DNA from: a virus
Length of the DNA: 22,659 nucleotides
Direction: 5' to 3' (one strand)
Virus record (IMG/VR): IMGVR_UViG_3300042892_002448
Location: 1 to 22,659 of that record
Shown here: piece by piece, positions 1 through 22,444 of the stretch
How the letters are laid out: every line of letters begins with the position of its first letter
How positions within the stretch are numbered: the first letter of the stretch is position 1
Translations under genes and position numbers: made by a program
The notes under the pieces: model-generated
Seen by the model: only the letters and a program-made list of their open reading frames with translations
What the model was told of the DNA's origin: nothing
Database searches by the model: none

Positions 1-456
1 CATTCAAACCAATCATATGATGAAATATTCCCATATGAAAAACACTTGGATGATGTTGTTGATGTAATCAAGCGTTTTGGTTACTCTGGTAAATTTATCG
101 TTGCTGGTTACCTACATGATAGTATCGAAGATGATGGTATATCATTTAACGATATTAAAAAACACTTTGGTATTGATATAGCTGAAATGGTTTATTGTGT
201 TACTGATGAATTAGGTAGAACTCGTAAAGAGAAAAAAGAAAAGACGTTACCTAAGACTGCTGGTAACCCAGATGCTATCATTCTTAAGTTAGCTGATAGA
301 ATTGCTAATATTGAGCATGGCGGTAAGATTGATATGTATGCTAAAGAATACGAAGAATTTAAAGGTGCTTTATTTTTAAACACACCATTAGATGCTCGAC
401 TTATGTGGAGTCATTTAGATAAATTATTGAAAATAAATTTGGTAGAATCAAATTAA
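1..456 (+). CDS. HD-domain hydrolase, SpoT/MESH1-like (5' end outside window)
   Basis: The frame is open from base 1, so the true start lies upstream; a TTG at 46 is only an internal codon. Numbering from base 1, the visible part carries H15, the LHDSIED motif (H39-D40, then E43-D44) and KLADR with D99. This is the metal-binding HD pattern of the (p)ppGpp hydrolase family (SpoT/RelA hydrolase domain, MESH1), where HDxxED and the later Asp hold Mn2+. The family removes the 3' pyrophosphate of alarmones; related phage proteins may act on other nucleotides. There is no synthetase domain in the visible part. The gene ends just before promoter 438-469. I infer a small alarmone hydrolase that could relieve the host stringent response; substrate not certain. 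Confidence 0.7.
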   Translation, partial: HSNQSYDEIFPYEKHLDDVVDVIKRFGYSGKFIVAGYLHDSIEDDGISFNDIKKHFGIDIAEMVYCVTDELGRTRKEKKEKTLPKTAGNPDAIILKLADRIANIEHGGKIDMYAKEYEEFKGALFLNTPLDARLMWSHLDKLLKINLVESN

Positions 457-3301: not shown

Positions 3302-4351
3302 ATGAAAAAACACATTAGTTTCCCAAGCATTGAGCAATTTAGAAATATTGTTTCCAATGTTAATAGAAGTTTTAATTTTGTTGGTCTTGACGAACAAGGT
3401 GAAGCAATCTATGACCATAATAAATTAAAACCAATACTTACTTTCAAAGGTACTGTTAAATTACATGGTACAAATGCTGGTGTGTGTTACAATTCAGCTG
3501 ATGGGTTATGGGCTCAATCTCGTGAGAATATAATCACACCAGAACAAGATAATGCTGGGTTTGCTTTTTTTGTTGAAAGTAATAAAGAACAATTCTGTTC
3601 TTTAATTGATAAAGTGATTGATACAACACATGTTGATACCATATTGAATAATATTTCTATTTATGGTGAGTGGTGTGGTGGTAACATTCAAAAAGGTGTT
3701 GGTATTACCAACTTACCTAAGTCTTTCTTTATCTTTGGTGTTAAGATTAGTCCAATCGTAGATAAAGACGATGAGGCAGCTGCTAAAGCTAATCCAGCAT
3801 ACTGGGTAGATTCAACTTACTTAAGAAATAACCAAGCTAGAATTTATAACATTAATGATTTCCTAACTTGGGAAATGGATATCAATTTTAATGAGCCAGA
3901 AATGTCTCAAAACAAATTGAGCGAGTTAACTATCGCTGTTGAAGAAGAATGCCCTGTCGCTAAAGCGTTTGGTTTCTCTGGTATTGGTGAAGGTATCGTA
4001 TGGGCTTGTGAATACAAAGATGTTGTTCATAGATTCAAGGTTAAGGGTGAAAAACACTCTGCTAGTAAAGTTAGAACACTAGCTGCTGTTGATACTGAAA
4101 AGATTAACAGTATCAAAGAATTTGTTGAATACGCAGTAACTGAAAGCCGTTTCAATCAAGGTCTTGAAAAGACATTCATTAATGGTGAGCCTATTGATGT
4201 TAAAAAGATAGGTGAATTAATGAAGTGGATTGTTAGTGATATCCTAAAGGAAGAAATGGATACTATGGTAGCTAATAAACTTGAACCTAAAGATATCGGT
4301 AAATACGTATCTACAAAGGTTAGAGAAATGTTCTTTAAACTACCAGTCTAG
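3302..4351 (+). CDS. RNA ligase, T4 Rnl2 type
   Basis: 349 aa, matching the usual size (T4 Rnl2 is 334 aa). The family seals 3'-OH/5'-phosphate breaks in RNA, often in duplex or nicked contexts, through a lysyl-AMP intermediate. Visible motifs: motif I KLHGTN with nucleophile K53, R74 in the QSRE segment, YGEWCGG with E123, motif IV EGIV with E230, motif V FKVKG with K246 and K248. A C-terminal helical domain (about 265-349) resembles the Rnl2 RNA-binding domain. All active-site residues seem intact. It shares an operon with the DNA ligase and lies a few kb from a 2H phosphoesterase and a tRNA array, so tRNA repair or splicing is a plausible job. Confidence 0.9.
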   Translation: MKKHISFPSIEQFRNIVSNVNRSFNFVGLDEQGEAIYDHNKLKPILTFKGTVKLHGTNAGVCYNSADGLWAQSRENIITPEQDNAGFAFFVESNKEQFCSLIDKVIDTTHVDTILNNISIYGEWCGGNIQKGVGITNLPKSFFIFGVKISPIVDKDDEAAAKANPAYWVDSTYLRNNQARIYNINDFLTWEMDINFNEPEMSQNKLSELTIAVEEECPVAKAFGFSGIGEGIVWACEYKDVVHRFKVKGEKHSASKVRTLAAVDTEKINSIKEFVEYAVTESRFNQGLEKTFINGEPIDVKKIGELMKWIVSDILKEEMDTMVANKLEPKDIGKYVSTKVREMFFKLPV

Positions 4352-5352: not shown

Positions 5353-6672
5353 ATGATAACAAAAGAAAACGGTCTTAAGTACGCAAAGCTTATCCACGTT
5401 AGTGTGGATAACGGCAAAACTGATAACAGTAATAAAGTTTACATAATGGAAGAACTATCCGATGGTCGCATTAAATGCGAATATGGTCGAGTAGGGAAAC
5501 AATTAGTTACTGAATTTAAGCCAAGCCACAAATGGGATAGTGTACTTAAACAGAAACTTAGTAAGACTAAAGGTTATACTGATGTTACTGATTTATTAGT
5601 CACAAAAGAAGAAATCATTGATGATAACGCAGCACCTAAAGATAATAAGGTTGATGCTATCAAAGATGCACTTGTAAAGAAGTTGATTGAAGAATTAATG
5701 GCTTTTGCAAACAAATCAATCCAAAAGAACTACAAGGTTACACAAGAAGCCGTATCTGAACAACAAGTTAATGCGGCACAAGATGTTATCTCACAAATTA
5801 GTGGGTTAGTAAAGATTGGTGTTGACATTAAACATGTAAACGATTTATTATTGAAATTATATACAATTATCCCTCGTAGAATGGATAATGTTAAAGACCA
5901 TTTAATGTATGCTATTACTAGCAAAGATTCATTATCTACAGCTCAACATATCATAGATAACGAGCAATCAGCATTAGATACAATGGCTGGACAGGTACAA
6001 TTGATTAAACAACAAAAAGAAGCTGCCGAAAAAGCTAAAGCTGATGCTGTTGAAACTAAGGGTAAGAAAATAAAAGGTAAGGAAATTACTATACTTGACC
6101 AAATGGGTTTATCAATTGAAGTTGAGAATGATAAAACAACGCTTGATTTGATTAAGAAATTAATGGGGTCAAATGTAAATCAAATGAAGAAAGTGTATAA
6201 AGTTATTAATAGCAAAACACAAGTTAAATTTGATGCTCATTATGCCAAGGCTGAAGTTAAAAAGAAACGACTATATTGGCATGGTTCAAGAAACGAGAAC
6301 TGGTTTAATATCCTTCAAACAGGATTGCTTATCAGACCATCTGGTGCTGTACATACTGGAAGTATGTTCGGTGATGGTATCTACTTTGCCGATAAAGCTC
6401 AGAAATCAATTGGTTACACATCATTAAGAGGTTCTTATTGGGCACATGGTGGTGGTGATAAAGCATTCTTAGCTTTATTTGATGTACAAGTAGGTAAACA
6501 AAAAGAAATCCTTCATCACACATCAAGTTGTTCATCTTTATCTGATAAGGTAATGAAGAAAGAAGGGTACGATAGTGTATTTGCTAAGGGTGGTGCTGAT
6601 TTAAGAAACAATGAATATATTATTTACAAAGGGGAGCAGTGTACTGTTTCACATTTAATAGAAATTGGATAA
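5353..6672 (+). CDS. WGR-domain poly(ADP-ribose) polymerase-like protein
   Basis: 439 aa. Order: WGR domain (about 8-82, with KVYIMEEL and CEYGRVG), helical region resembling the PARP regulatory domain (about 100-230, ELMAFANKSIQ onward), then the ADP-ribosyltransferase domain (about 300-439). The H-Y-E triad of the PARP1 group is complete: H310 in YWHGSR, Y344 in MFGDGIYFADKA, E421 in NNEYIIY. In PARP1 the Glu supports chain elongation, so true PAR synthesis from NAD+ is possible. WGR domains sense DNA ends, so the protein probably acts on nucleoprotein. Leaderless promoter upstream; it overlaps the next gene by one base. Domain calls are from remembered motifs but the match is strong. Confidence 0.92.
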   Translation: MITKENGLKYAKLIHVSVDNGKTDNSNKVYIMEELSDGRIKCEYGRVGKQLVTEFKPSHKWDSVLKQKLSKTKGYTDVTDLLVTKEEIIDDNAAPKDNKVDAIKDALVKKLIEELMAFANKSIQKNYKVTQEAVSEQQVNAAQDVISQISGLVKIGVDIKHVNDLLLKLYTIIPRRMDNVKDHLMYAITSKDSLSTAQHIIDNEQSALDTMAGQVQLIKQQKEAAEKAKADAVETKGKKIKGKEITILDQMGLSIEVENDKTTLDLIKKLMGSNVNQMKKVYKVINSKTQVKFDAHYAKAEVKKKRLYWHGSRNENWFNILQTGLLIRPSGAVHTGSMFGDGIYFADKAQKSIGYTSLRGSYWAHGGGDKAFLALFDVQVGKQKEILHHTSSCSSLSDKVMKKEGYDSVFAKGGADLRNNEYIIYKGEQCTVSHLIEIG

Positions 6673-13222: not shown

Positions 13223-13243
13223 TAAAAAAAAACAAAAAAAGAC

Positions 13244-13274
13244 TTGCTTTATTAGAAAATGTTTAGTACCTTTG
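13244..13274 (+). promoter_or_regulatory. tRNA-array promoter 1
   Basis: TTG 13244-13246, 20 bp, TACCTTTG 13267-13274. The box lies inside the first copy of the conserved leader block and drives leader peptide 1 and the Cys/Val/Leu tRNA cluster. Confidence 0.85.
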
Positions 13275-13328
13275 TGTAACTTTAAGAAAAAGCTATATAT
13301 TTATTACAAACGGGGTAACCCAAAAACA
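13256..13328 (+). repeat. Conserved promoter/leader block, copy 1
   Basis: 73 bp, 70 identical to 16221-16293; the three differences fall in a 4-base patch after GTGTAAC. It holds the -7 box, a TATTTATT element (13298-13305), the sequence AAACGGGGTAACCC and an A-rich run just before the leader ATG. Such identity in a noncoding leader, when the sequences after it differ completely, shows recent duplication or strong selection on the 5' UTR. Confidence 0.9.
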
Positions 13329-13337
13329 AAAAAGAAA

Positions 13338-13412
13338 ATGAGAACAACAAGCGTAATATTAGTCCTTTTATTGTGTTTACTAGTGGTAGACAGGGTGGGC
13401 TATGCTTGTTAG
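13338..13412 (+). CDS. Leader peptide 1 (attenuator, Val/Leu/Cys-rich)
   Basis: 24 codons beginning MRTTS, then VILVLLLCLLVV (residues 6-17), then DRVGYAC. The Leu codons are TTA, CTT, TTA, TTG, TTA and CTA, the Val codons in the run GTA, GTC, GTG and GTA, and Cys13 is TGT. Downstream tRNAs are Cys(GCA) x2, Val(GAC), Val(TAC) and Leu(CAA, TAA, TAG, AAG), so every Leu isoacceptor has its codon here. The segment 13392-13401 near the end of the ORF can pair with 13438-13447, the 5' arm of the terminator. This is the layout of an amino-acid attenuator. Too hydrophobic and short to be an ordinary gene; function as a sensor is inferred. Confidence 0.75.
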   Translation: MRTTSVILVLLLCLLVVDRVGYAC

Positions 13413-13447
13413 TTAATTACATAACTTAAACAATCGAAGCCCTTCCT
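13392..13447 (+). promoter_or_regulatory. Candidate antiterminator pairing of attenuator 1
   Basis: AGGGTGGGCT (13392-13401) can pair with AGCCCTTCCT (13438-13447): eight Watson-Crick pairs, one G-U and one mismatch. This excludes the terminator stem 13437-13461. The first segment lies in the last codons of leader 1, so a ribosome that finishes the ORF would mask it. Confidence 0.5.
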
Positions 13448-13467
13448 AATCCGAAGGGCTTTTTTTA
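13437..13467 (+). terminator. Intrinsic terminator after leader peptide 1
   Basis: AAGCCCTTC (13437-13445), 7-nt loop, GAAGGGCTT (13453-13461), then a T run to 13467. It lies only four bases before the first tRNA, so constitutive termination would silence the tRNA cluster. Confidence 0.9.
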
Positions 13468-13470
13468 TAT

Positions 13471-13556
13471 GCTGATGTGGCGTGAGAGGCTTAAACCAAC
13501 AGTCTGCAAAACTGTTTCTCGAAAGAGAGTCGCCAGTTCGAATCTGGCCATCAGCT
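13471..13556 (+). tRNA. tRNA-Cys(GCA) with long variable arm
   Basis: 86 nt. Acceptor GCTGATG/CATCAGC, discriminator T73 (the Cys identity base), anticodon stem ACAGT/ACTGT with loop CTGCAAA (GCA at 13506-13508), T arm GCCAG/CTGGC with TTCGAAT. Between anticodon and T arms is a 16-nt variable arm with the hairpin TCTC-GAAA-GAGA. Bacterial tRNA-Cys normally has a 4-5 nt variable loop, so this is unusual. The D arm has a Ser/Leu-like loop. CCA is not encoded. Confidence 0.88.
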
Positions 13557-13557
13557 C

Positions 13558-13755
13558 ATGGAAAATGAGAATAAAAAAGTAAAAGAAATGGCTAGGAAAT
13601 GGGAAACCTTAGGTTTCCTTGATGGACTTAAGGGTCATATAAAAGAAAACATAGCTAACCTTTATGAAGGATGTAGAAGAATGATTAAGAATGAAGAAAC
13701 TGGCGAATGGGAGTGTTGTAAAGAAGGAATAAATTGTGACGATAAAAAAGAATAA
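13558..13755 (+). CDS. Small protein, capsid N-terminus-like, 65 aa
   Basis: ATG lies two bases after the tRNA-Cys discriminator. The segment ARKWETLGFLDGLKGHIKEN, then IANLYEGC, resembles the N-terminal part of T4-type major capsid proteins of Bacteroidetes phages (KWE.TGLLEGL....NIA.LLENQ), from memory. The C-terminus has a short Cys-containing tail (ECCKEGINCDDKKE). As with the protein at 7194, this may be a shortened capsid paralogue. Alternatively the motif is a coincidental helix. Confidence 0.5.
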   Translation: MENENKKVKEMARKWETLGFLDGLKGHIKENIANLYEGCRRMIKNEETGEWECCKEGINCDDKKE

Positions 13756-13759
13756 ATAT

Positions 13760-13830
13760 GTCCCCTTGGCCGAGAGAATAGGCACACCGCTGCAAACGGT
13801 GGTACAGTGGTTTGAATCCATTAGGGGACT
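13760..13830 (+). tRNA. tRNA-Cys(GCA)
   Basis: 71 nt, ordinary shape: acceptor GTCCCCT/AGGGGAC, D stem GCC/GGC, anticodon stem CACCG/CGGTG with loop CTGCAAA, 4-nt variable loop, T loop TTTGAAT, discriminator T. Second Cys tRNA, with a different body from the one at 13471. Confidence 0.9.
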
Positions 13831-13858
13831 CAAAATAACGTTTTAAAAAACAAACAAA

Positions 13859-14206
13859 ATGAAAACAAAGATTACACCGTATGAGTTCTTACAGAACAGA
13901 GATGAAACAGGAAGATTAATTGTCCGTATGCTTGATGGCACCAACAAAAACTATTATGTTGAATTCATCGAACCTAAGGGTGGTATCAGAACTGATTGGG
14001 GTTCTTATAACCCATCAACTGGTAACATTGAAAACAAGAAGGGTGCTGGTAAATACAATGGTGGAATCCCAGAAGAAGATTCATTGATTACTGTTGAAAA
14101 TGGCTTCAGTGAAGAAGATTCAAACACTATTCATCCAGGTGCATCATTTGAATGGAGTATAACAAAAGCACATAATAAATGGAAAAAGGAGAACGGTTAT
14201 GTTTGA
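13859..14206 (+). CDS. Unknown protein, 115 aa
   Basis: Starts MKTKITPYEFLQNRDETGRL and contains YVEFIEPKGGIRTDWGSYNP and an acidic stretch (EEDSLITVENGFSEED). Likely a small soluble beta-rich protein. I do not recognise it. It lies inside the first tRNA cluster, between tRNA-Cys and tRNA-Val, and overlaps the next gene by eight bases, so these two are probably cotranslated. Confidence 0.65.
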   Translation: MKTKITPYEFLQNRDETGRLIVRMLDGTNKNYYVEFIEPKGGIRTDWGSYNPSTGNIENKKGAGKYNGGIPEEDSLITVENGFSEEDSNTIHPGASFEWSITKAHNKWKKENGYV

Positions 14207-14504
14207 TATCAACGAAATAAAGAAAGACTTATATAAGTCAAAGAATATGGCTTATTTTAGTCATTATCAATCTGGTGATTTGTTTTATAACGTTGTAGTT
14301 ATGGATGCATTGTATCAATTTCCAATAGCAGTAGTTGAAACTGATTATATTGAGCCATTTGAAGAAGGTGAAGACGAAAGAGAAATAATTAAACTTTCTG
14401 AAGATTTAGGTAGTACACCATTTGAAGCTGAGATGAAAGGTTCTGAACTAATCAGATGGATGCAAATGGCGATTAAAAAAGAACAATTTATAAAGGTAGG
14501 GTAA
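14199..14504 (+). CDS. Unknown acidic protein, 101 aa
   Basis: Begins MFDINEIKKDLYKSKNMAYF; the middle has strands (DLFYNVVVMDALYQFPIAVVE) and the C-terminal half is acidic then helical (SELIRWMQMAIKKEQF). No motif recognised. A purine-rich AAAAGGAG lies just before its start. Its stop falls within a small hairpin (14495-14512) that precedes tRNA-Val. Confidence 0.65.
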   Translation: MFDINEIKKDLYKSKNMAYFSHYQSGDLFYNVVVMDALYQFPIAVVETDYIEPFEEGEDEREIIKLSEDLGSTPFEAEMKGSELIRWMQMAIKKEQFIKVG

Positions 14505-14512
14505 AACCTACC
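14495..14512 (+). other. Hairpin before tRNA-Val
   Basis: GGTAGG-GTAAAA-CCTACC spans the stop codon of the upstream gene and has no T run after it. More likely an mRNA/tRNA boundary or processing element than a terminator. Confidence 0.4.
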
Positions 14513-14516
14513 ATAT

Positions 14517-14588
14517 TGGAGCTTAACTCAGAGGCAGAGTAATACTATGACATGGTATAAGTCGAGATTTCGAAATTCTCAGTTCCAA
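14517..14588 (+). tRNA. tRNA-Val(GAC)
   Basis: 72 nt. Acceptor TGGAGCT/AGTTCCA (one G-U), D stem ACTC/GAGT, anticodon stem ATACT/GGTAT with loop ATGACAT, variable loop about 5 nt, T loop TTCGAAA with one mismatch in the T stem, discriminator A. No encoded CCA. Confidence 0.78.
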
Positions 14589-14593
14589 CATAA

Positions 14594-14664
14594 GGGAGAT
14601 GCATATAATGGTGGTATGCTGCGTTTACATCGCAGTCGAACTGGTTCGATTCCAGTATTTCCTA
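14594..14664 (+). tRNA. tRNA-Val(TAC)
   Basis: 71 nt. Acceptor GGGAGAT/ATTTCCT with two wobble pairs, anticodon stem CTGCG/CGCAG with loop TTTACAT, T stem ACTGG/CCAGT with TTCGATT, discriminator A. The D stem is short (ATA/TAT). Confidence 0.85.
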
Positions 14665-14693
14665 CAAAATAATATAAACTAAAAAAAAATAAA

Positions 14694-14840
14694 ATGGAAT
14701 TTATTTGTGCACACTGCGAGAAGCCAATCAGATGCTCAGCTATACTGGTTGATGGGGAGTTCTTACATTCTACTTGCGAAGCTTCATTTAATGAGGCAAA
14801 GGAAAAAGCTGAAGACAAGTTGGAAGAAGCTTGTTCATAG
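14694..14840 (+). CDS. Small zinc-finger-like protein, 48 aa
   Basis: ATG 14694 to TAG 14838-14840. The N-terminus has CAHC (residues 5-8), then a Cys at 14, and LHSTCEASF supplies His and Cys, forming a treble-clef-like C-x2-C...H-x2-C pattern with sequence ICAHCEKPIRC. The rest is a charged helix (EAKEKAEDKLEEAC). Probably a tiny zinc protein. It lies between tRNA-Val and tRNA-Leu genes. Confidence 0.6.
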   Translation: MEFICAHCEKPIRCSAILVDGEFLHSTCEASFNEAKEKAEDKLEEACS

Positions 14841-14847
14841 AATTGGT

Positions 14848-14868
14848 TTGTTCACGAATCATGAACAA
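14848..14868 (+). other. Hairpin before tRNA-Leu(CAA)
   Basis: TTGTTCA-CGAATCA-TGAACAA, 7-bp stem and 7-nt loop, without a T run. Confidence 0.35.
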
Positions 14869-14885
14869 GCAGAAAAAGTGAACAC

Positions 14886-14970
14886 GGGGATATGGTGGAA
14901 TTGGTAGACACGCTTGACTCAAAATCAAGTGCCGTAAGGCGTAACGGTTCGAGTCCGTTTATCCCTACCA
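14886..14970 (+). tRNA. tRNA-Leu(CAA), CCA encoded
   Basis: Acceptor GGGGATA/TATCCCT, discriminator A14967, CCA 14968-14970. Anticodon stem CTTGA/TCAAG with loop CTCAAAA. Class II variable arm, T stem AACGG/CCGTT with TTCGAGT. Reads TTG. Confidence 0.93.
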
Positions 14971-15054
14971 AAAGTGTATTATATTGCACATTTACGTGAA
15001 ATATACTTACATTTTGTGAAAAATACTTATAAAAGTGTATTATAGTGCACTTTT
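14971..15054 (+). repeat. Interlocking short repeats between tRNA-Leu genes
   Basis: A 19-bp motif starting AAAGTGTATTATA and ending TGCAC occurs at 14971-14989 and 15032-15050 (one difference). Between them GTGAAA-ATACTTA occurs twice (from 14996 and from 15016). The second copy is also an inverted repeat (AAAAGTG...CACTTTT, 15031-15054). No gene or promoter box seen here; possibly a processing or protein-binding site. Confidence 0.6.
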
Positions 15055-15062
15055 ATATACAT

Positions 15063-15149
15063 GGGGGTGTGATGAAATTGGTAGCACATGCGAGACTTAA
15101 AATCTCGTGGGCTGTGAAGCCCGTGTCGGTTCGACTCCGACCACCCCTA
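15063..15149 (+). tRNA. tRNA-Leu(TAA)
   Basis: 87 nt. Acceptor GGGGGTG/CACCCCT, anticodon stem CGAGA/TCTCG with loop CTTAAAA, class II variable arm GGGCTGTGAAGCCC, T stem GTCGG/CCGAC with TTCGACT, discriminator A. Confidence 0.92.
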
Positions 15150-15153
15150 CAAA

Positions 15154-15342
15154 ATGGAATATATTGAAAAAATATTTTTACGTGAATTAGACTTGATGAA
15201 ATCTCGTGGTTTTATTGTAGGTTTAAGTAATGTATCAATAACTGATAAAACATTAAATGTATTATCATCATTTTATGGAGTTGAAGAAAATGAAATAGTC
15301 GTTTTATTTAATAAGATATTTAAAAATAAAGTTGCAAAATAG
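15154..15342 (+). CDS. Unknown small protein, 62 aa
   Basis: ATG four bases after tRNA-Leu(TAA). Helical protein starting MEYIEKIFLRELDLMKSRGF with a C-terminal basic tail (FNKIFKNKVAK). No family recognised. Ends inside the next promoter region. Confidence 0.55.
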   Translation: MEYIEKIFLRELDLMKSRGFIVGLSNVSITDKTLNVLSSFYGVEENEIVVLFNKIFKNKVAK

Positions 15343-15362
15343 AAAAACATTTAGTACCTTTG
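15332..15362 (+). promoter_or_regulatory. Internal tRNA promoter
   Basis: TTG 15332-15334, 20 bp, TACCTTTG 15355-15362, ten bases before tRNA-Leu(TAG). It gives the later Leu tRNAs transcription independent of attenuator 1. Confidence 0.8.
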
Positions 15363-15372
15363 CAAAACAAAT

Positions 15373-15454
15373 GGGGATATGGTGGAATTGGTAGACACGC
15401 TGGTCTTAGAAGCCAGTGTCGAAAGACGTGGGAGTTCGAGTCTCCCTATCCCTA
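15373..15454 (+). tRNA. tRNA-Leu(TAG)
   Basis: 82 nt. Acceptor GGGGATA/TATCCCT, anticodon stem CTGGT/GCCAG with loop CTTAGAA, class II variable arm, T stem GGGAG/CTCCC with TTCGAGT, discriminator A. Its 5' half is nearly the same as tRNA-Leu(CAA) at 14886, so the two are probably duplicates that changed anticodon. Confidence 0.93.
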
Positions 15455-15458
15455 CTAA

Positions 15459-15537
15459 AAGATAGTTACTGCAAATAAAAGGTTAAAAATTTATCTCAAA
15501 CATAAATCCAGTGGTTCAATCCCACAAAACTATCTTG
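15459..15537 (+). tRNA. Degenerate tRNA-like element, apparent CAA anticodon
   Basis: AAGATAGTT (from 15459) pairs perfectly with AACTATCTT (to 15536). Inside are a T arm (GTGG/CCAC with loop TTCAATC) and an anticodon arm (TTTAT/ATAAA with loop CTCAAAC). The D stem is missing and the variable loop is only about 3 nt, unlike any tRNA-Leu. Counting from 15462 the element has 73-nt tRNA length. It lies between two good tRNA-Leu genes. Could be a decaying tRNA or a mitochondrial-like minimal tRNA. Confidence 0.45.
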
Positions 15538-15542
15538 AATTT

Positions 15543-15624
15543 GGCCGAATGGTGGAATTGGTAGACACGCCAGTCTAAGAAGCTGGTGCCGCAAGGCGTG
15601 AGAGTTCGAGTCTCTCTTTGGTCA
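15543..15624 (+). tRNA. tRNA-Leu(AAG)
   Basis: 82 nt. Acceptor GGCCGAA/TTTGGTC with two wobbles, anticodon stem CCAGT/GCTGG with loop CTAAGAA, class II variable arm, T stem GAGAG/CTCTC, discriminator A. An A34 anticodon is rare in bacteria outside Arg(ACG) and would usually be deaminated to inosine by TadA. Confidence 0.9.
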
Positions 15625-15625
15625 C

Positions 15626-15940
15626 ATGGCTGTGACAACATTAGTTAATCTGAACAAAGAACCTTATGATGTTTACATCGGTAGGGGAAGCAAATGGGGT
15701 TGTCCTTATACAATAATAAAGGACCGACCAACACTAGCTAAAGAAATTGTTGATACAAAGGAAGAAGCATTATCAAAGTATAAAGAATATGTTCTTGCTA
15801 GTCCAGAGTTGATGAATAGTCTTGATGAGTTATATGGAAAGGCACTTGGTTGTTTTTGTAAGCCAGATAAGTGTCATGGTGATGTACTATTAGAACTGAT
15901 ATCACAAAAGAAATTAAAAGAATTTTTAGCTAATAAGTGA
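15626..15940 (+). CDS. DUF4326 family protein
   Basis: 104 aa. It has the full family pattern: VNLNKEPYDVYIGRGSKWGCPY near the start, KYKEYVLASPEL in the middle, and LYGKALGCFCKPDKCHGDVL near the end with conserved Cys and His. The family is widespread in bacteria and phages; the reaction is unknown, and the Cys/His set suggests metal binding. ATG lies one base after the tRNA-Leu(AAG) discriminator. Start chosen by the family N-terminus. Confidence 0.88.
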   Translation: MAVTTLVNLNKEPYDVYIGRGSKWGCPYTIIKDRPTLAKEIVDTKEEALSKYKEYVLASPELMNSLDELYGKALGCFCKPDKCHGDVLLELISQKKLKEFLANK

Positions 15941-15948
15941 TATTTATA
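15941..15948 (+). promoter_or_regulatory. TATTTATA element (candidate late-type promoter)
   Basis: TATTTATA, three bases (AGT), then ATG 15952. The arrangement is the same as at 18183-18194. Confidence 0.4.
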
Positions 15949-15951
15949 AGT

Positions 15952-16185
15952 ATGAAAGAATTTATTAGAACATTAATTAGAGAGAATTTAGGTAAGGAAA
16001 TATCAAGAAAATTCTTGACTCAATATATCAAGGGTGTTAGTGATAAATTAACTTTTAAATTAATTACTAGTTGGATTAACCGAGGTACTGGTGATATGGT
16101 AAGTTTATCACCAAAAGAATCTACCTTGTGGAATATAATAAAAACAACAGGTATAGCACCAAAAGAATTCAGTTCTAAAAATTAA
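15952..16185 (+). CDS. Small basic protein with head-targeting-like N-terminus
   Basis: 77 aa from ATG 15952 (a GTG five codons upstream overlaps the previous stop). It begins MKEFIRTLIRENLGKEISRK, again a short amphipathic helix with an I-R-E site at residues 9-11 like the T4 capsid-targeting peptide. The remainder contains FLTQYIKGVSDKLTFKLI and SLSPKESTLWNII. Basic and small, as T4 internal proteins are. Function is inferred only from the N-terminus. Confidence 0.6.
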   Translation: MKEFIRTLIRENLGKEISRKFLTQYIKGVSDKLTFKLITSWINRGTGDMVSLSPKESTLWNIIKTTGIAPKEFSSKN

Positions 16186-16208
16186 TTTAAAAATAATTTA
16201 AAAAAAGC

Positions 16209-16239
16209 TTGCTTTTACCAAAAATGTTTAGTACCTTTG
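16209..16239 (+). promoter_or_regulatory. tRNA-array promoter 2
   Basis: TTG 16209-16211, 20 bp, TACCTTTG 16232-16239, at the front of the second leader block; drives leader peptide 2 and the Phe/Glu/Asp/Ala tRNA cluster. Confidence 0.85.
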
Positions 16240-16293
16240 TGTAACAATTAGAAAAAGCTATATATTTATTACAAACGGGGTAACCCAAAAACA
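16221..16293 (+). repeat. Conserved promoter/leader block, copy 2
   Basis: 73 bp with three differences from 13256-13328. Contains a TATTTATT element at 16263-16270. Identity stops at the start of the leader ORF apart from the first codons ATG AGA ACA, which both copies share. Confidence 0.9.
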
Positions 16294-16300
16294 TAAAACA

Positions 16301-16390
16301 ATGAGAACAGTTAACAACATATTTGATTTTGCATTTTTTGCTGCCGAGGCCGATAGAAGCCAAGGAAGGTCAACTATTGTCAAATGTTAA
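16301..16390 (+). CDS. Leader peptide 2 (attenuator, Phe/Asp/Ala/Glu run)
   Basis: 29 codons beginning MRTVNNI, then FDFAFFAAEAD (residues 8-18, bases 16322-16354), ending STIVKC. The 11-residue run uses only Phe, Asp, Ala and Glu; the nine tRNAs that follow are Phe x2, Glu x2, Asp x3 and Ala x2. An intrinsic terminator follows 25 bases after the stop. The match of peptide to tRNA content, the shared leader block and the shared MRT start make this the partner of leader 1. By eye I did not find a good antiterminator for this copy. Confidence 0.75.
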   Translation: MRTVNNIFDFAFFAAEADRSQGRSTIVKC

Positions 16391-16415
16391 CGTAATTGTT
16401 AAATACATATTGATG

Positions 16416-16445
16416 AGAGCTGGCCGAAACGCCAGCTCTTTTTTT
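16416..16445 (+). terminator. Intrinsic terminator after leader peptide 2
   Basis: AGAGCTGGC (16416-16424), loop CGAAAC, GCCAGCTCT (16431-16439), then a T run to 16445. It lies nine bases before tRNA-Phe. Confidence 0.92.
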
Positions 16446-16454
16446 GTTACATAT

Positions 16455-16530
16455 GGTGCTTAAGCTAACTTGGTAGAAGCACTGGTCTGAAAAACCAGAG
16501 GACTCGGTTCGAAACCGAGAAGTACCACCA
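16455..16530 (+). tRNA. tRNA-Phe(GAA), CCA encoded
   Basis: Acceptor GGTGCTT/AAGTACC, discriminator A16527, CCA 16528-16530. Anticodon stem CTGGT/ACCAG with loop CTGAAAA, T stem CTCGG/CCGAG with TTCGAAA, 4-nt variable loop. Confidence 0.92.
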
Positions 16531-16560
16531 AAAAGTTGTTTGACATATTGGATTTAATTT

Positions 16561-16633
16561 GTGGGTGTAGCTCAGTTGGTAGAGCACTACGTTGAAGGCG
16601 TAGGTGTCGCTGGTTCGAATCCAGCCGCCCACA
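16561..16633 (+). tRNA. tRNA-Phe(GAA), second copy
   Basis: 73 nt. Acceptor GTGGGTG/CGCCCAC, D stem GCTC/GAGC, anticodon stem CTACG/CGTAG with loop TTGAAGG, T stem GCTGG/CCAGC, discriminator A. Loop positions 37-38 are GG, unlike the first copy, so the two have separate origins. Confidence 0.9.
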
Positions 16634-16638
16634 CACAT

Positions 16639-16725
16639 GTTGCATTAGACTAGCGGCCTAGGTCGTCACCCTTTCAAGGTGATGGAAGAAATTCCTCACG
16701 GGTTCGAATCCCGTATGCAATACCA
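16639..16725 (+). tRNA. tRNA-Glu(TTC) with long variable arm, CCA encoded
   Basis: 84 nt plus CCA. Acceptor GTTGCAT/ATGCAAT, D stem GAC/GTC, anticodon stem TCACC/GGTGA with loop CTTTCAA, T stem ACGGG/CCCGT with TTCGAAT. Variable region is 15 nt with the hairpin GGAA-GAAA-TTCC, whereas bacterial tRNA-Glu normally has 4-5 nt. All other elements are intact. Confidence 0.88.
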
Positions 16726-16797
16726 CGTCCCATCGAATAGTGGTTAGTTCGTTTGGTTTTCAACCAAAAAACAGGGGTTCAATTCCCCTTGGGATGA
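16726..16797 (+). tRNA. tRNA-Glu(TTC), ordinary shape
   Basis: 72 nt directly after the CCA of the previous tRNA. Acceptor CGTCCCA/TGGGATG, D stem GAA/TTC, anticodon stem TTTGG/CCAAA with loop TTTTCAA, T stem AGGGG/CCCCT with TTCAATT, discriminator A. Confidence 0.88.
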
Positions 16798-16864
16798 CAA
16801 ACGCTCAAGCTAGGTTACGACTAGTATGAGTTTTGAGTATGACAATCTGGAAAGACAGATACAC
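16798..16864 (+). other. Structured tRNA spacer
   Basis: Holds nested inverted repeats: CTCAA...TTGAG around CTAG-GTTACGA-CTAG, then ATCTG-GAAAGA-CAGAT. No T-loop motif, so not a recognisable tRNA. Could fold into processing hairpins. Confidence 0.4.
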
Positions 16865-16936
16865 GGCTAGTTAGTAGAGAGGAACAATATCGCACTGTCA
16901 CTGCGAAGGTCACGGGTTCGAGTCCCGTACTAGCCG
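16865..16936 (+). tRNA. tRNA-Asp(GTC)
   Basis: 72 nt. Acceptor GGCTAGT/ACTAGCC perfect, discriminator G (Asp identity), anticodon stem TCGCA/TGCGA with loop CTGTCAC, T stem ACGGG/CCCGT with TTCGAGT. The D stem is weak. Confidence 0.88.
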
Positions 16937-16947
16937 CTGAATAAAAT

Positions 16948-17030
16948 GGTCTGGGCGTATAACGGCTGGTGCACTACCCTGTCACGGTAGCGTGTAAAAA
17001 CAAAGTGGGTTCGACTCCCATCTTAGACCG
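16948..17030 (+). tRNA. tRNA-Asp(GTC) with long variable region
   Basis: 83 nt. Acceptor GGTCTGG/TTAGACC with two G-U pairs, discriminator G, anticodon stem CTACC/GGTAG with loop CTGTCAC, T stem GTGGG/CCCAT with TTCGACT. The variable region is 14 nt (16991-17004) with a weak TGT/ACA hairpin, and one extra C (17022) separates T and acceptor stems. Confidence 0.8.
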
Positions 17031-17086
17031 CTAGCAGAAATGGTTTTCAATGACCGCAAACTGAAAATTAAAGAAATATTGAAACT

Positions 17087-17162
17087 GGGGTAGCATGTAC
17101 CAAGGCTTTGGCGATGTTGACTTGCAATCAGCGTGAGGTGGGTTCGATTCCCATCTGCTCCA
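17087..17162 (+). tRNA. tRNA-Ala(TGC) with unusual D arm
   Basis: 76 nt. Acceptor GGGGTAG/CTGCTCC (two wobbles), anticodon stem GTTGA/TCAGC with loop CTTGCAA, T stem GTGGG/CCCAT, discriminator A. The D region does not form the normal stem; instead CCAA-GGCT-TTGG makes a tight hairpin. The G3-U70 pair that marks tRNA-Ala is present (G at 3 facing T at 70). Confidence 0.8.
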
Positions 17163-17167
17163 CAAAT

Positions 17168-17240
17168 GGTCCGTAGGTGTAACGGTTGCAGTCTCCCCCT
17201 GTCACGGGGAGGGTAACGGGTTCGACTCCCGTACAGACCG
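17168..17240 (+). tRNA. tRNA-Asp(GTC), third copy
   Basis: 73 nt. Acceptor GGTCCGT/ACAGACC with one C-A mismatch, discriminator G, anticodon stem TCCCC/GGGGA with loop CTGTCAC, T stem ACGGG/CCCGT with TTCGACT. Confidence 0.85.
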
Positions 17241-17245
17241 CTTAG

Positions 17246-17273
17246 TTATCTGGCAATATCTGGTAATAGATAT
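17246..17273 (+). repeat. 28-bp direct repeat, copy A
   Basis: Begins TTATCTGGCAATA and contains CTGGTAATAGA; 26 of 28 bases match 17310-17337. Also contains a tandem half-repeat ATCTGGCAAT/ATCTGGTAAT. Confidence 0.75.
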
Positions 17274-17309
17274 AGCCACTAACATAAGCAAAAATAGGGT
17301 ATTGTCAGT

Positions 17310-17337
17310 TTATCTGGCAATACCTGGTAATAGAGAT
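17310..17337 (+). repeat. 28-bp direct repeat, copy B
   Basis: Second copy of the repeat at 17246-17273, in the spacer between tRNA-Asp and tRNA-Ala. Confidence 0.75.
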
Positions 17338-17341
17338 GAGC

Positions 17342-17371
17342 TGGCGAAACACTCTTTAAAAAGTTTTGCCA
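17342..17371 (+). other. Hairpin before tRNA-Ala
   Basis: TGGCGAAAC...GTTTTGCCA, nine pairs with one G-U and a 12-nt loop, four bases before the tRNA; likely a processing or pausing hairpin. Confidence 0.4.
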
Positions 17372-17374
17372 CAT

Positions 17375-17447
17375 GGGCCTATAGCTCAACTGGCTGAGCA
17401 TCTGCCTTGCACGTAGAAGGATGTGGGTTCGAATCCCACTGGGTCCA
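17375..17447 (+). tRNA. tRNA-Ala(TGC), ordinary shape
   Basis: 73 nt. Acceptor GGGCCTA/TGGGTCC with the G3-U70 pair, D stem GCTC/GAGC, anticodon stem TCTGC/GTAGA with loop CTTGCAC, T stem GTGGG/CCCAC with TTCGAAT, discriminator A. Confidence 0.9.
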
Positions 17448-17456
17448 CAAAATAAA

Positions 17457-21664: not shown

Positions 21665-21695
21665 TTGACAGGTATTAAAATTGTTAGTATCATTG
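21665..21695 (+). promoter_or_regulatory. Variant promoter before the second RNA cluster
   Basis: TTG 21665-21667, 20 bp, TATCATTG 21688-21695 (one change from TAnnTTTG). No leader ORF follows; the next features are a structured leader and tRNA-Phe. Confidence 0.6.
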
Positions 21696-22076: not shown

Positions 22077-22175
22077 GGTCGAGTAGCTCAGTTGGTTCAG
22101 AGCGTAGAAAAAAATCGGCAGATATGCGTTACGGTTGAGTATCTAAGGTCGGTGGTTCGAACCCACTCTCTTCCA
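22077..22175 (+). tRNA. Interrupted or degenerate tRNA-like gene, specificity unclear
   Basis: 99 nt. D arm GCTC/GAGC, variable loop AGGTC and T arm GGTGG/CCACT with TTCGAAC are normal; the acceptor GGTCGAG/CTCTTCC has two mismatches. Between D arm and variable loop are 42 bases instead of 18, so about 24 extra. TAGA (22105-22108) could pair with TCTA (22142-22145), as if the anticodon stem were split by an insertion. Trial removals leave a TGA anticodon, which does not fit the body, so no specificity is assigned. Confidence 0.5.
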
Positions 22176-22322: not shown

Positions 22323-22439
22323 GGGGTGGTAGCTCAGTTGGTAGAGCACGTAAAAAATTTAATCTGATAAGATTAATTACAGCAATCCAACTTAAGCCTT
22401 TTAAGCTCGTGGTCGCTGGTTCGAATCCAGCCCACCCCA
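22323..22439 (+). tRNA. tRNA-Lys(TTT) interrupted by a 44-nt insertion
   Basis: Acceptor GGGGTGG/CCACCCC, D stem GCTC/GAGC, variable loop TGGTC, T stem GCTGG/CCAGC with TTCGAAT, discriminator A. The 5' strand of the anticodon stem is split: CG at 22349-22350, then 44 extra bases (22351-22394), then AGC (22395-22397), loop CTTTTAA, and 3' strand GCTCG. Deleting 22351-22394 gives a perfect 73-nt tRNA-Lys(TTT) with stem CGAGC/GCTCG. The insert itself contains TTAATCT-GATA-AGATTAA (22359-22376). Confidence 0.85.
22351..22394 (+). other. Intron-like insert in tRNA-Lys
   Basis: 44 nt between tRNA positions 28 and 29. Begins TAAAAAATTT, ends AACTTA, and carries a 7-bp hairpin with GATA loop. Far too short for a group I intron. 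Confidence 0.7.
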
Positions 22440-22444
22440 CATAT

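What the first reader, a model, noticed from the sequence alone, without database searches (positions are those of the whole stretch)
13256..17447. Two attenuator modules whose leader peptides spell the tRNAs they control
Two nearly identical 73-bp promoter/5'-UTR blocks each lead into a short ORF, an intrinsic terminator and then a tRNA cluster. Leader 2's run FDFAFFAAEAD uses only Phe, Asp, Ala and Glu; the nine tRNAs before the next protein gene are Phe x2, Glu x2, Asp x3 and Ala x2. Leader 1's run VILVLLLCLLVV uses Val, Leu, Cys and one Ile; the cluster behind it holds Cys x2, Val x2 and four tRNA-Leu. Amino-acid attenuators of biosynthetic operons are well known, and so are tRNA-sensing T-boxes, but I know of no phage system in which a leader peptide samples the tRNAs encoded downstream. 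Inferred logic: when these tRNAs are depleted (host shutdown, codon demand or anticodon nucleases), the ribosome stalls and the tRNA array is transcribed.
Basis: partly seen in the sequence, partly recalled or inferred. Interest (0 to 1): 0.96.

Follow-up and report, generated by a model that had tools for sequence, protein, structure and literature searches.

The report
Phage tRNA-sensing leader peptides
Large viruses of Bacteroidota-type bacteria place short "test" genes in front of their transfer-RNA genes, and each test gene is written in exactly the amino acids whose tRNAs follow, so the virus most likely switches on a given set of tRNAs only when the cell runs short of them.

Summary
In the window, two promoter–leader ORF–terminator units precede tRNA clusters whose amino acids match the leader (VLC; FDAE). 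Relatives carry two further units (TKYQPG; INHMSWR); the four tRNA sets are disjoint and cover all 20 amino acids. Unrelated Bacteroidota-type phages partition the amino acids differently, yet match again: the 735-kb huge phage LR756501 (5 units), LR745206, LR756502 and LR756504 (6–7 each), and cultured Cellulophaga phage phi17:2 (3 units). Examples: SSRSRSS before Arg/Ser tRNAs, QQQQQQQ before Gln, SLSLSLSL before Leu/Ser. In all six phage sets the real leader–cluster pairing is the single best of all possible pairings (1 of 362,880 for the first nine units). A segment near the leader's 3' end complements the terminator's 5' arm and changes together with it. In nascent-RNA folding this antiterminator forms only while the ribosome has not passed the matched codons. 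Best explanation: classical ribosome-mediated transcription attenuation, rewired so that shortage of usable tRNA switches on genes for those same tRNAs. The parts list is strongly supported in silico; sensing and readthrough have not been measured. No earlier report turned up in the papers searched. Mechanism class known; target, breadth and phage setting new.

The parts
13243..13274 (+). Promoter of unit 1, Bacteroidota type (upstream TTTG-like element and -7 TAGTACCTTTG)
   Evidence: Sequence; copy of unit 2's promoter, 88% identical over 102 bp
13275..13337 (+). 5' UTR of unit 1 (...AAAAAGCTATATATTTATTACAAACGGGGTAACCC...)
   Evidence: Shared with unit 2
13338..13412 (+). Leader 1 ORF MRTTSVILVLLLCLLVVDRVGYAC*
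   Evidence: Conserved class L1 in 18 modules found by scan, always before Cys/Val/Leu tRNAs
13353..13388 (+). Control-codon run VILVLLLCLLVV; all codons but ATA are read by tRNAs of the cluster
13392..13401 (+). Antiterminator strand inside leader 1 (AGGGTGGGCT), complementary to terminator 5' arm AAGCCCTTCC
   Evidence: Duplex -14.6 kcal/mol versus -8.8 for codon-shuffled leaders, P 0.015; forms only with ribosome upstream of about codon 17
13436..13466 (+). Intrinsic terminator 1
   Evidence: 10-bp stem and T-run
13471..15625 (+). tRNA cluster 1: Cys(gca)x2, Val(gac), Val(tac), Leu(caa), Leu(taa), Leu(tag), Leu(aag), with small ORFs between
   Evidence: ARAGORN and Rfam
16208..16239 (+). 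Promoter of unit 2
16301..16390 (+). Leader 2 ORF MRTVNNIFDFAFFAAEADRSQGRSTIVKC*
   Evidence: Class L2 in 16 modules; control run under purifying selection, pN/pS 0.39
16322..16354 (+). Control-codon run FDFAFFAAEAD
16367..16382 (+). Antiterminator strand inside leader 2 (AGGTCA...TGTCA), partner of terminator 5' arm GAGAGCTGGCC
   Evidence: Weak in this one sequence (P 0.33) but conserved in class L2, and own terminators beat swapped ones (194 of 20,000)
16412..16445 (+). Intrinsic terminator 2
16455..17448 (+). tRNA cluster 2: Phe x2, Glu x2, Asp x2 (third Asp uncertain), Ala x2

Best explanation
Each unit is a ribosome-mediated transcription attenuator whose regulated genes are the tRNAs that its own leader tests. 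RNA polymerase starts at a Bacteroidota-type promoter and transcribes a 15-42-codon leader that is translated at once. If all the tRNAs tested are available, the ribosome runs through the control codons and covers the antiterminator strand near the end of the leader; the terminator hairpin forms and transcription stops before the tRNA genes. If any tested tRNA is missing or uncharged, the ribosome stalls in the control run; the antiterminator strand stays free and pairs with the terminator's 5' arm, and the tRNA cluster is transcribed. Each leader is thus an OR-gate for 1-7 amino acids, and a phage's set of leaders together surveys most or all 20. Shown in silico: architecture, leader-tRNA matching, conserved and covarying antiterminator/terminator pairing, and placement of control codons upstream of the computed switch point. 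Inferred: translation, stalling, readthrough, and the trigger (tRNA cleavage by host defence, codon demand or charging).
For: (1) A scan that ignored amino-acid content found 102 promoter/ORF/terminator candidates in the fetched phage DNA; 88 are followed by tRNAs, and all 74 of those left after removing alternative-frame or non-leader ORFs are matched leaders. (2) Classes L1-L4 have disjoint tRNA sets covering 20 amino acids; LR756501's five sets also cover 20; the true pairing is 1 of 362,880. (3) Unrelated phages chosen by an EF-G or DNA-ligase match, not by leaders, show the same with different partitions; the true pairing is unique best in each of six sets. (4) The leader segment pairs with the terminator 5' arm, own -13.5 versus other-class -8.9 kcal/mol; swapping terminators within a class lowers complementarity (reached in 1, 15, 23 and 194 of 20,000 permutations for L4, L3, L1, L2). 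(5) Antiterminator formation in nascent RNA is lost just after the matched run: matched residues before/after the switch are .53/.03 (L2).85/.24 (L3).86/.41 (L4) and 234/428 versus 40/187 in 23 further units. (6) The L2 control run has pN/pS 0.39. (7) Leader-peptide attenuation is reported for amino-acid operons of Flavobacterium (PMC9723704).
Against: No expression data. At equilibrium the full terminator is favoured from nearly every ribosome position, so the model depends on co-transcriptional kinetics, as in known attenuators. In some units the antiterminator strand lies 20-30 nt upstream of the stop codon, so masking depends on ribosome transit rather than on a ribosome parked at the stop. 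Some tRNAs in the window have leader-free promoters (15350-15362 before Leu(tag); about 21677-21695 before Phe 21800). One leader (G034) has no detected tRNA within 10 kb. Synonymous-codon spread within leaders is not clearly above expectation. Pairings within a clade are not phylogenetically independent.
Confidence: 0.9

Rival explanations
1. The same attenuator senses amino-acid starvation (uncharged tRNA) rather than loss of tRNA molecules; making more tRNA is a by-product or helps through extra acceptor pools and phage synthetases.
For: Leader attenuators of biosynthetic operons sense charging (established knowledge); LR756501's Leu unit is followed by a class I tRNA synthetase ORF that best matches leucyl-tRNA synthetases.
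Against: No biosynthetic genes follow the leaders; the output is tRNAs, which do not relieve amino-acid shortage; the leaders cover all 20 amino acids.
Confidence: 0.25
2. The short ORFs make functional peptides or are translation buffers for tRNA-operon transcripts, and the amino-acid match is a by-product of shared composition or common ancestry.
For: Leaders within a class are conserved.
Against: Unrelated phages use different partitions and unrelated peptides that still match, including QQQQQQQ, SSRSRSS and SLSLSLSL; the match stops at the computed switch point.
Confidence: 0.03
3. The units are T-box riboswitches or other tRNA-binding RNAs, with the ORF incidental.
For: tRNA is the signal in both; leader 1 holds an AGGGTGG stretch that recalls the T-box motif.
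Against: Only tRNA families pass Rfam's gathering scores in the window; AGGGTGG is the antiterminator strand and becomes AGGATGGGTT or CTGGGTGGGCT in relatives along with the terminator; the reading frame carries the specificity.
Confidence: 0.02
4. Inverse logic: fast translation favours the tRNA genes and stalling shuts them off.
For: Expression direction has not been measured.
Against: The antiterminator strand lies downstream of the control codons and is free only when the ribosome is upstream of it.
Confidence: 0.05

Closest known systems
Ribosome-mediated transcription attenuators of amino-acid operons (trp, his, leu, ilvGMEDA, ilvBNC)
   Same: Leader peptide rich in regulatory codons, antiterminator competing with an intrinsic terminator, ribosome position as the switch
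   Different: Regulated genes are tRNAs, not biosynthetic enzymes; each leader tests 1-7 unrelated amino acids; the set covers up to 20; found in phages; product and signal are the same molecule
pheST (phenylalanyl-tRNA synthetase) attenuator of E. coli (from general knowledge)
   Same: A Phe-rich leader regulates translation machinery instead of biosynthesis
   Different: One amino acid, one host operon, enzyme product
T-box riboswitches
   Same: Gene expression is switched by availability of charged tRNA of a given identity
   Different: Direct RNA-tRNA binding without a translated leader; none detected by Rfam here
Leader-peptide attenuators of flavobacterial amino-acid operons (PMC9723704)
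   Same: Same host phylum and same apparent mechanism
   Different: Host biosynthetic operons; tRNA genes not mentioned in the passage read
tRNA arrays of huge phages (PMC7162821) and phage tRNAs that evade tRNA-cleaving defences (PMC10264068, PMC11555353)
   Different: No leader control appears in the passages or abstracts read; this adds a cis circuit that could turn the tRNAs on when tRNAs are lost

Membership tests
Ribosome-mediated transcription attenuator (trp/his/leu type) | Short translated leader ORF between promoter and regulated genes | tested here: met
   ORF present in every unit; L2 control run pN/pS 0.39. Translation itself was not measured.
Ribosome-mediated transcription attenuator (trp/his/leu type) | Regulatory codons specific for the operon's product or pathway | tested here: met
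   Leader residues match downstream tRNAs; true pairing is best in six phage sets
Ribosome-mediated transcription attenuator (trp/his/leu type) | Intrinsic terminator before the first regulated gene | tested here: met
Ribosome-mediated transcription attenuator (trp/his/leu type) | Antiterminator pairing mutually exclusive with the terminator | tested here: met
   Pairing with terminator 5' arm, covarying within classes; weak in a few single units, window unit 2 among them
Ribosome-mediated transcription attenuator (trp/his/leu type) | Ribosome position decides between the two structures | tested here: met
   In-silico nascent folding only; equilibrium folding favours the terminator
Ribosome-mediated transcription attenuator (trp/his/leu type) | 1:2 pause/protector hairpin | not tested
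   No systematic search made
Ribosome-mediated transcription attenuator (trp/his/leu type) | Readthrough rises when the cognate charged tRNA is limiting | not testable with these tools
   Needs experiment
T-box riboswitch | T-box fold with specifier loop and conserved T-box sequence | tested here: not met
   No match at gathering score in the window

The most novel reading that the evidence does not exclude
Large Bacteroidota phages carry a complete tRNA surveillance array: a small set of leader attenuators that partition all 20 amino acids, each turning on exactly the tRNAs it finds missing. This would be an autogenous, inducible countermeasure to host tRNA-cleaving defences and to codon demand, re-invented with different partitions in different phage lineages.
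Probability: 0.75. Interest if true: 0.97.

Novelty: new variant of a known kind. Interest (0 to 1): 0.94.

Why it matters
Why phages carry tRNA genes has been debated for about 50 years (stated in the abstract of PMC10264068). A circuit that switches tRNA clusters on when those very tRNAs run short would mean that the phage senses its tRNA supply and replaces what is lost, and it makes the question testable in a cultured phage-host pair (Cellulophaga baltica with phi17:2 or phi4:1). It would also be an attenuator family that controls stable RNA genes and reads up to seven amino acids at once, and it lets one predict from a 20-40-codon ORF which tRNAs follow.

Tried and rejected
Exact-pattern scans with the 5' UTR block found no relatives; protein-based and leader-based scans did. 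Equilibrium folding with a ribosome footprint mostly showed the terminator from all positions, so nascent RNA cut before the terminator's 3' arm was used instead. A test whether leaders spread over more synonymous codons than expected was inconclusive. T-box: no Rfam match. A host-chromosome copy was sought with the L4 pattern in genome contigs: none. Negative controls, namely tRNA regions of crAss-like cr111_1, Stenotrophomonas RAS14, Streptomyces Jollison, Proteus Mydo and the 484-kb LR756508, gave no terminator followed by tRNAs (GC-rich terminators may score differently). Alternative-frame ORFs at L1 units were discarded as nested duplicates. Literature: no report of leader-peptide control of tRNA clusters in seven searches, but the library lacks most subscription journals.
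Full report
What is in the window. Two units share an almost identical promoter and 5' UTR (88% over about 102 bp). The promoter is of Bacteroidota type (-7 element TAGTACCTTTG). Unit 1 encodes MRTTSVILVLLLCLLVVDRVGYAC*, then a terminator, then tRNAs Cys2 Val2 Leu4. Unit 2 encodes MRTVNNIFDFAFFAAEADRSQGRSTIVKC*, then a terminator, then Phe2 Glu2 Asp2 Ala2. In unit 1 every codon of the run except ATA is read by a tRNA of its own cluster, and each of the four Leu anticodons has a codon in the run. The window is a 22.7-kb viral contig. Its DNA ligase is 53% identical to that of Cellulophaga phage phi17:2.

Relatives complete the set. Four contigs with a homologous 769-aa protein keep both units, or the part of them that lies on the contig, with altered leaders. 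Scans with leader DNA patterns found further contigs, several of them 200-370 kb. A systematic scan that did not look at amino-acid content found 102 promoter-ORF-terminator candidates, 88 of them before tRNAs. Removing alternative-frame or non-leader ORFs leaves 74, and all of these belong to matched classes. Two more classes appear: L3, for example MTTTTTYQTQYQPKGGKPF..., before Pro, Lys, Gly, Gln, Tyr and Thr tRNAs; and L4, for example MRTINIHMISISNWRRNSHQ..., before Ser, His, Trp, Ile, Met, Asn and Arg tRNAs. The four tRNA sets are disjoint and together cover exactly 20 amino acids. L4 and part of L2 were gathered by leader DNA pattern, so their number says nothing about frequency; tRNA content was never used for selection.

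Unrelated phages do the same with other partitions. The 735-kb huge phage LR756501 came in through a homing-endonuclease match. It has five units: YNDYCIND before Ile/Cys/Asn/Asp/Tyr; a Leu-rich leader before five tRNA-Leu followed by a class I synthetase ORF that best matches leucyl-tRNA synthetases; MIQEQMQQIQ before Met/Gln/Glu/Ile; TPAPAVAFRRGTGTGTGT before Arg/Thr/Val/Ala/Gly/Pro; and SKHSKHFSSSSKWF before Trp/His/Phe/Lys/Ser. LR745206, LR756502 and LR756504, found by elongation-factor G similarity, have 7, 7 and 6 units, including QQQQQQQ before Gln, SSRSRSS before Arg/Ser, SLSLSLSL before Leu/Ser/Cys and IAMIIRMRII before Arg/Ile/Met. Cultured Cellulophaga phage phi17:2 has three: KIQRLHLQELEQP before Pro/Glu/Gln/His/Leu/Arg; QLTKTGITVIDKTKGARA (GTG start; within annotated gp077, whose reported start is upstream) before Ala/Lys/Ile/Gly/Met/Asp/Thr/Val/Arg; and NYCTYNNSNWSFSY before Tyr/Ser/Asn/Trp/Phe. 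Phage phi4:1 carries nearly the same DNA over the first of these units and its tRNAs.

Statistics. For nine unit types the true leader-cluster pairing is the best of 362,880. Taken separately it is the unique best of 24 (window family), 120 (LR756501), 5040 (LR745206), 5040 (LR756502), 720 (LR756504) and 6 (phi17:2) pairings. LR745206 and LR756502 are related to each other, so these are not fully independent.

Antiterminator. In most units a leader segment downstream of the matched run is complementary to the 5' arm of the terminator. Own pairing averages -13.5 kcal/mol, against -8.9 with terminators of other classes. Both partners change together: in L4, GTCGGGT/ACCCGAC, GGTCAAGG/CCTTGACC and CTAGGTC/GACCTAG. 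Exchanging terminators among leaders of one class lowers complementarity; the observed value was reached in 1, 15, 23 and 194 of 20,000 permutations for L4, L3, L1 and L2 (related sequences make these only indicative). Window unit 2 is weak taken alone (P 0.33).

Position of the switch. I folded the RNA between the leading edge of a ribosome and the end of the terminator's 5' half, for every codon. The antiterminator forms while the ribosome is in the matched run and is lost just after it. Matched residues before and after the switch are .53/.03 (L2).85/.24 (L3).86/.41 (L4) and .58/.38 (L1). In the 23 units of the other phages the counts are 234 of 428 against 40 of 187. The switch point was computed from RNA pairing alone, so its agreement with the end of the amino-acid match is an independent support. 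Full-length equilibrium folding favours the terminator from almost every position, so the switch must be kinetic, as in known attenuators.

Reading. This is the anatomy of ribosome-mediated transcription attenuation with tRNA genes as the output. Each leader acts as an OR-gate: lack of any one tested tRNA would induce the whole cluster. The most sensible trigger is loss of tRNA, for example by the tRNA-cleaving defences that phage tRNAs are known to counter (PMC10264068, PMC11555353); uncharging remains possible. With no ribosome on the leader the antiterminator strand is also free, so readthrough may occur when translation fails altogether (inference). Exceptions exist: leader-free promoters before tRNA-Leu(tag) and tRNA-Phe in the window, and one leader (G034) without a detected tRNA.

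Known or new. Leader-peptide attenuation is reported for flavobacterial amino-acid operons (PMC9723704). The huge-phage paper describes the tRNAs and synthetases, and no leader control appears in the passages read (PMC7162821). Seven literature searches found no report of leader peptides that match downstream tRNAs, within an open-licence library only. I file it as a new variant of a known kind of regulator, with a new target, new breadth and a new setting.

Noticed in passing
window 22323-22440 and 22077-22175: Overlong tRNA genes; the first is called by ARAGORN as a UAA-reading (tta) tRNA with a 46-nt insert at base 31. Rfam tRNA hits of 99-124 nt also occur in other phages.
   Followed up: partly
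window 15350-15362 and about 21669-21695: Bacteroidota-type promoters directly before tRNA-Leu(tag) and tRNA-Phe without any leader: leader-independent expression of some tRNAs.
   Followed up: partly
window 46-456 (+): HD_4 protein (Pfam PF13328) that by eye resembles RelA/SpoT-type (p)ppGpp hydrolases; it could damp a stringent response to uncharged tRNA.
   Followed up: partly
window 3302-4351 and 5353-6672 (+): RNA ligase and a PARP-domain protein; in phi17:2 the corresponding ligase/PARP stretch also holds a tRNA nucleotidyltransferase, suggesting a tRNA-repair neighbourhood.
   Followed up: partly
L008 20638-22164: Class I tRNA synthetase ORF (508 aa, best matches leucyl) directly after LR756501's five tRNA-Leu genes, so apparently within the Leu attenuator's operon.
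   Followed up: partly
G024 (L161) about 16042 and 14478, minus strand: Two tandem L4 leaders, the second after the first tRNA-His of the cluster; LR745206 and LR756502 likewise have a Gln-only leader inside a Pro/Asp/Gln cluster.
   Followed up: no
L183 (G034) about 1251-1360: L4 leader and terminator with no tRNA detected within 10 kb downstream: lost, missed or rearranged cluster.
   Followed up: no
G006, G007, G012, G014: tRNAs called Pyl (CUA anticodon, UAG-reading) in several relatives, possibly suppressor tRNAs.
   Followed up: no
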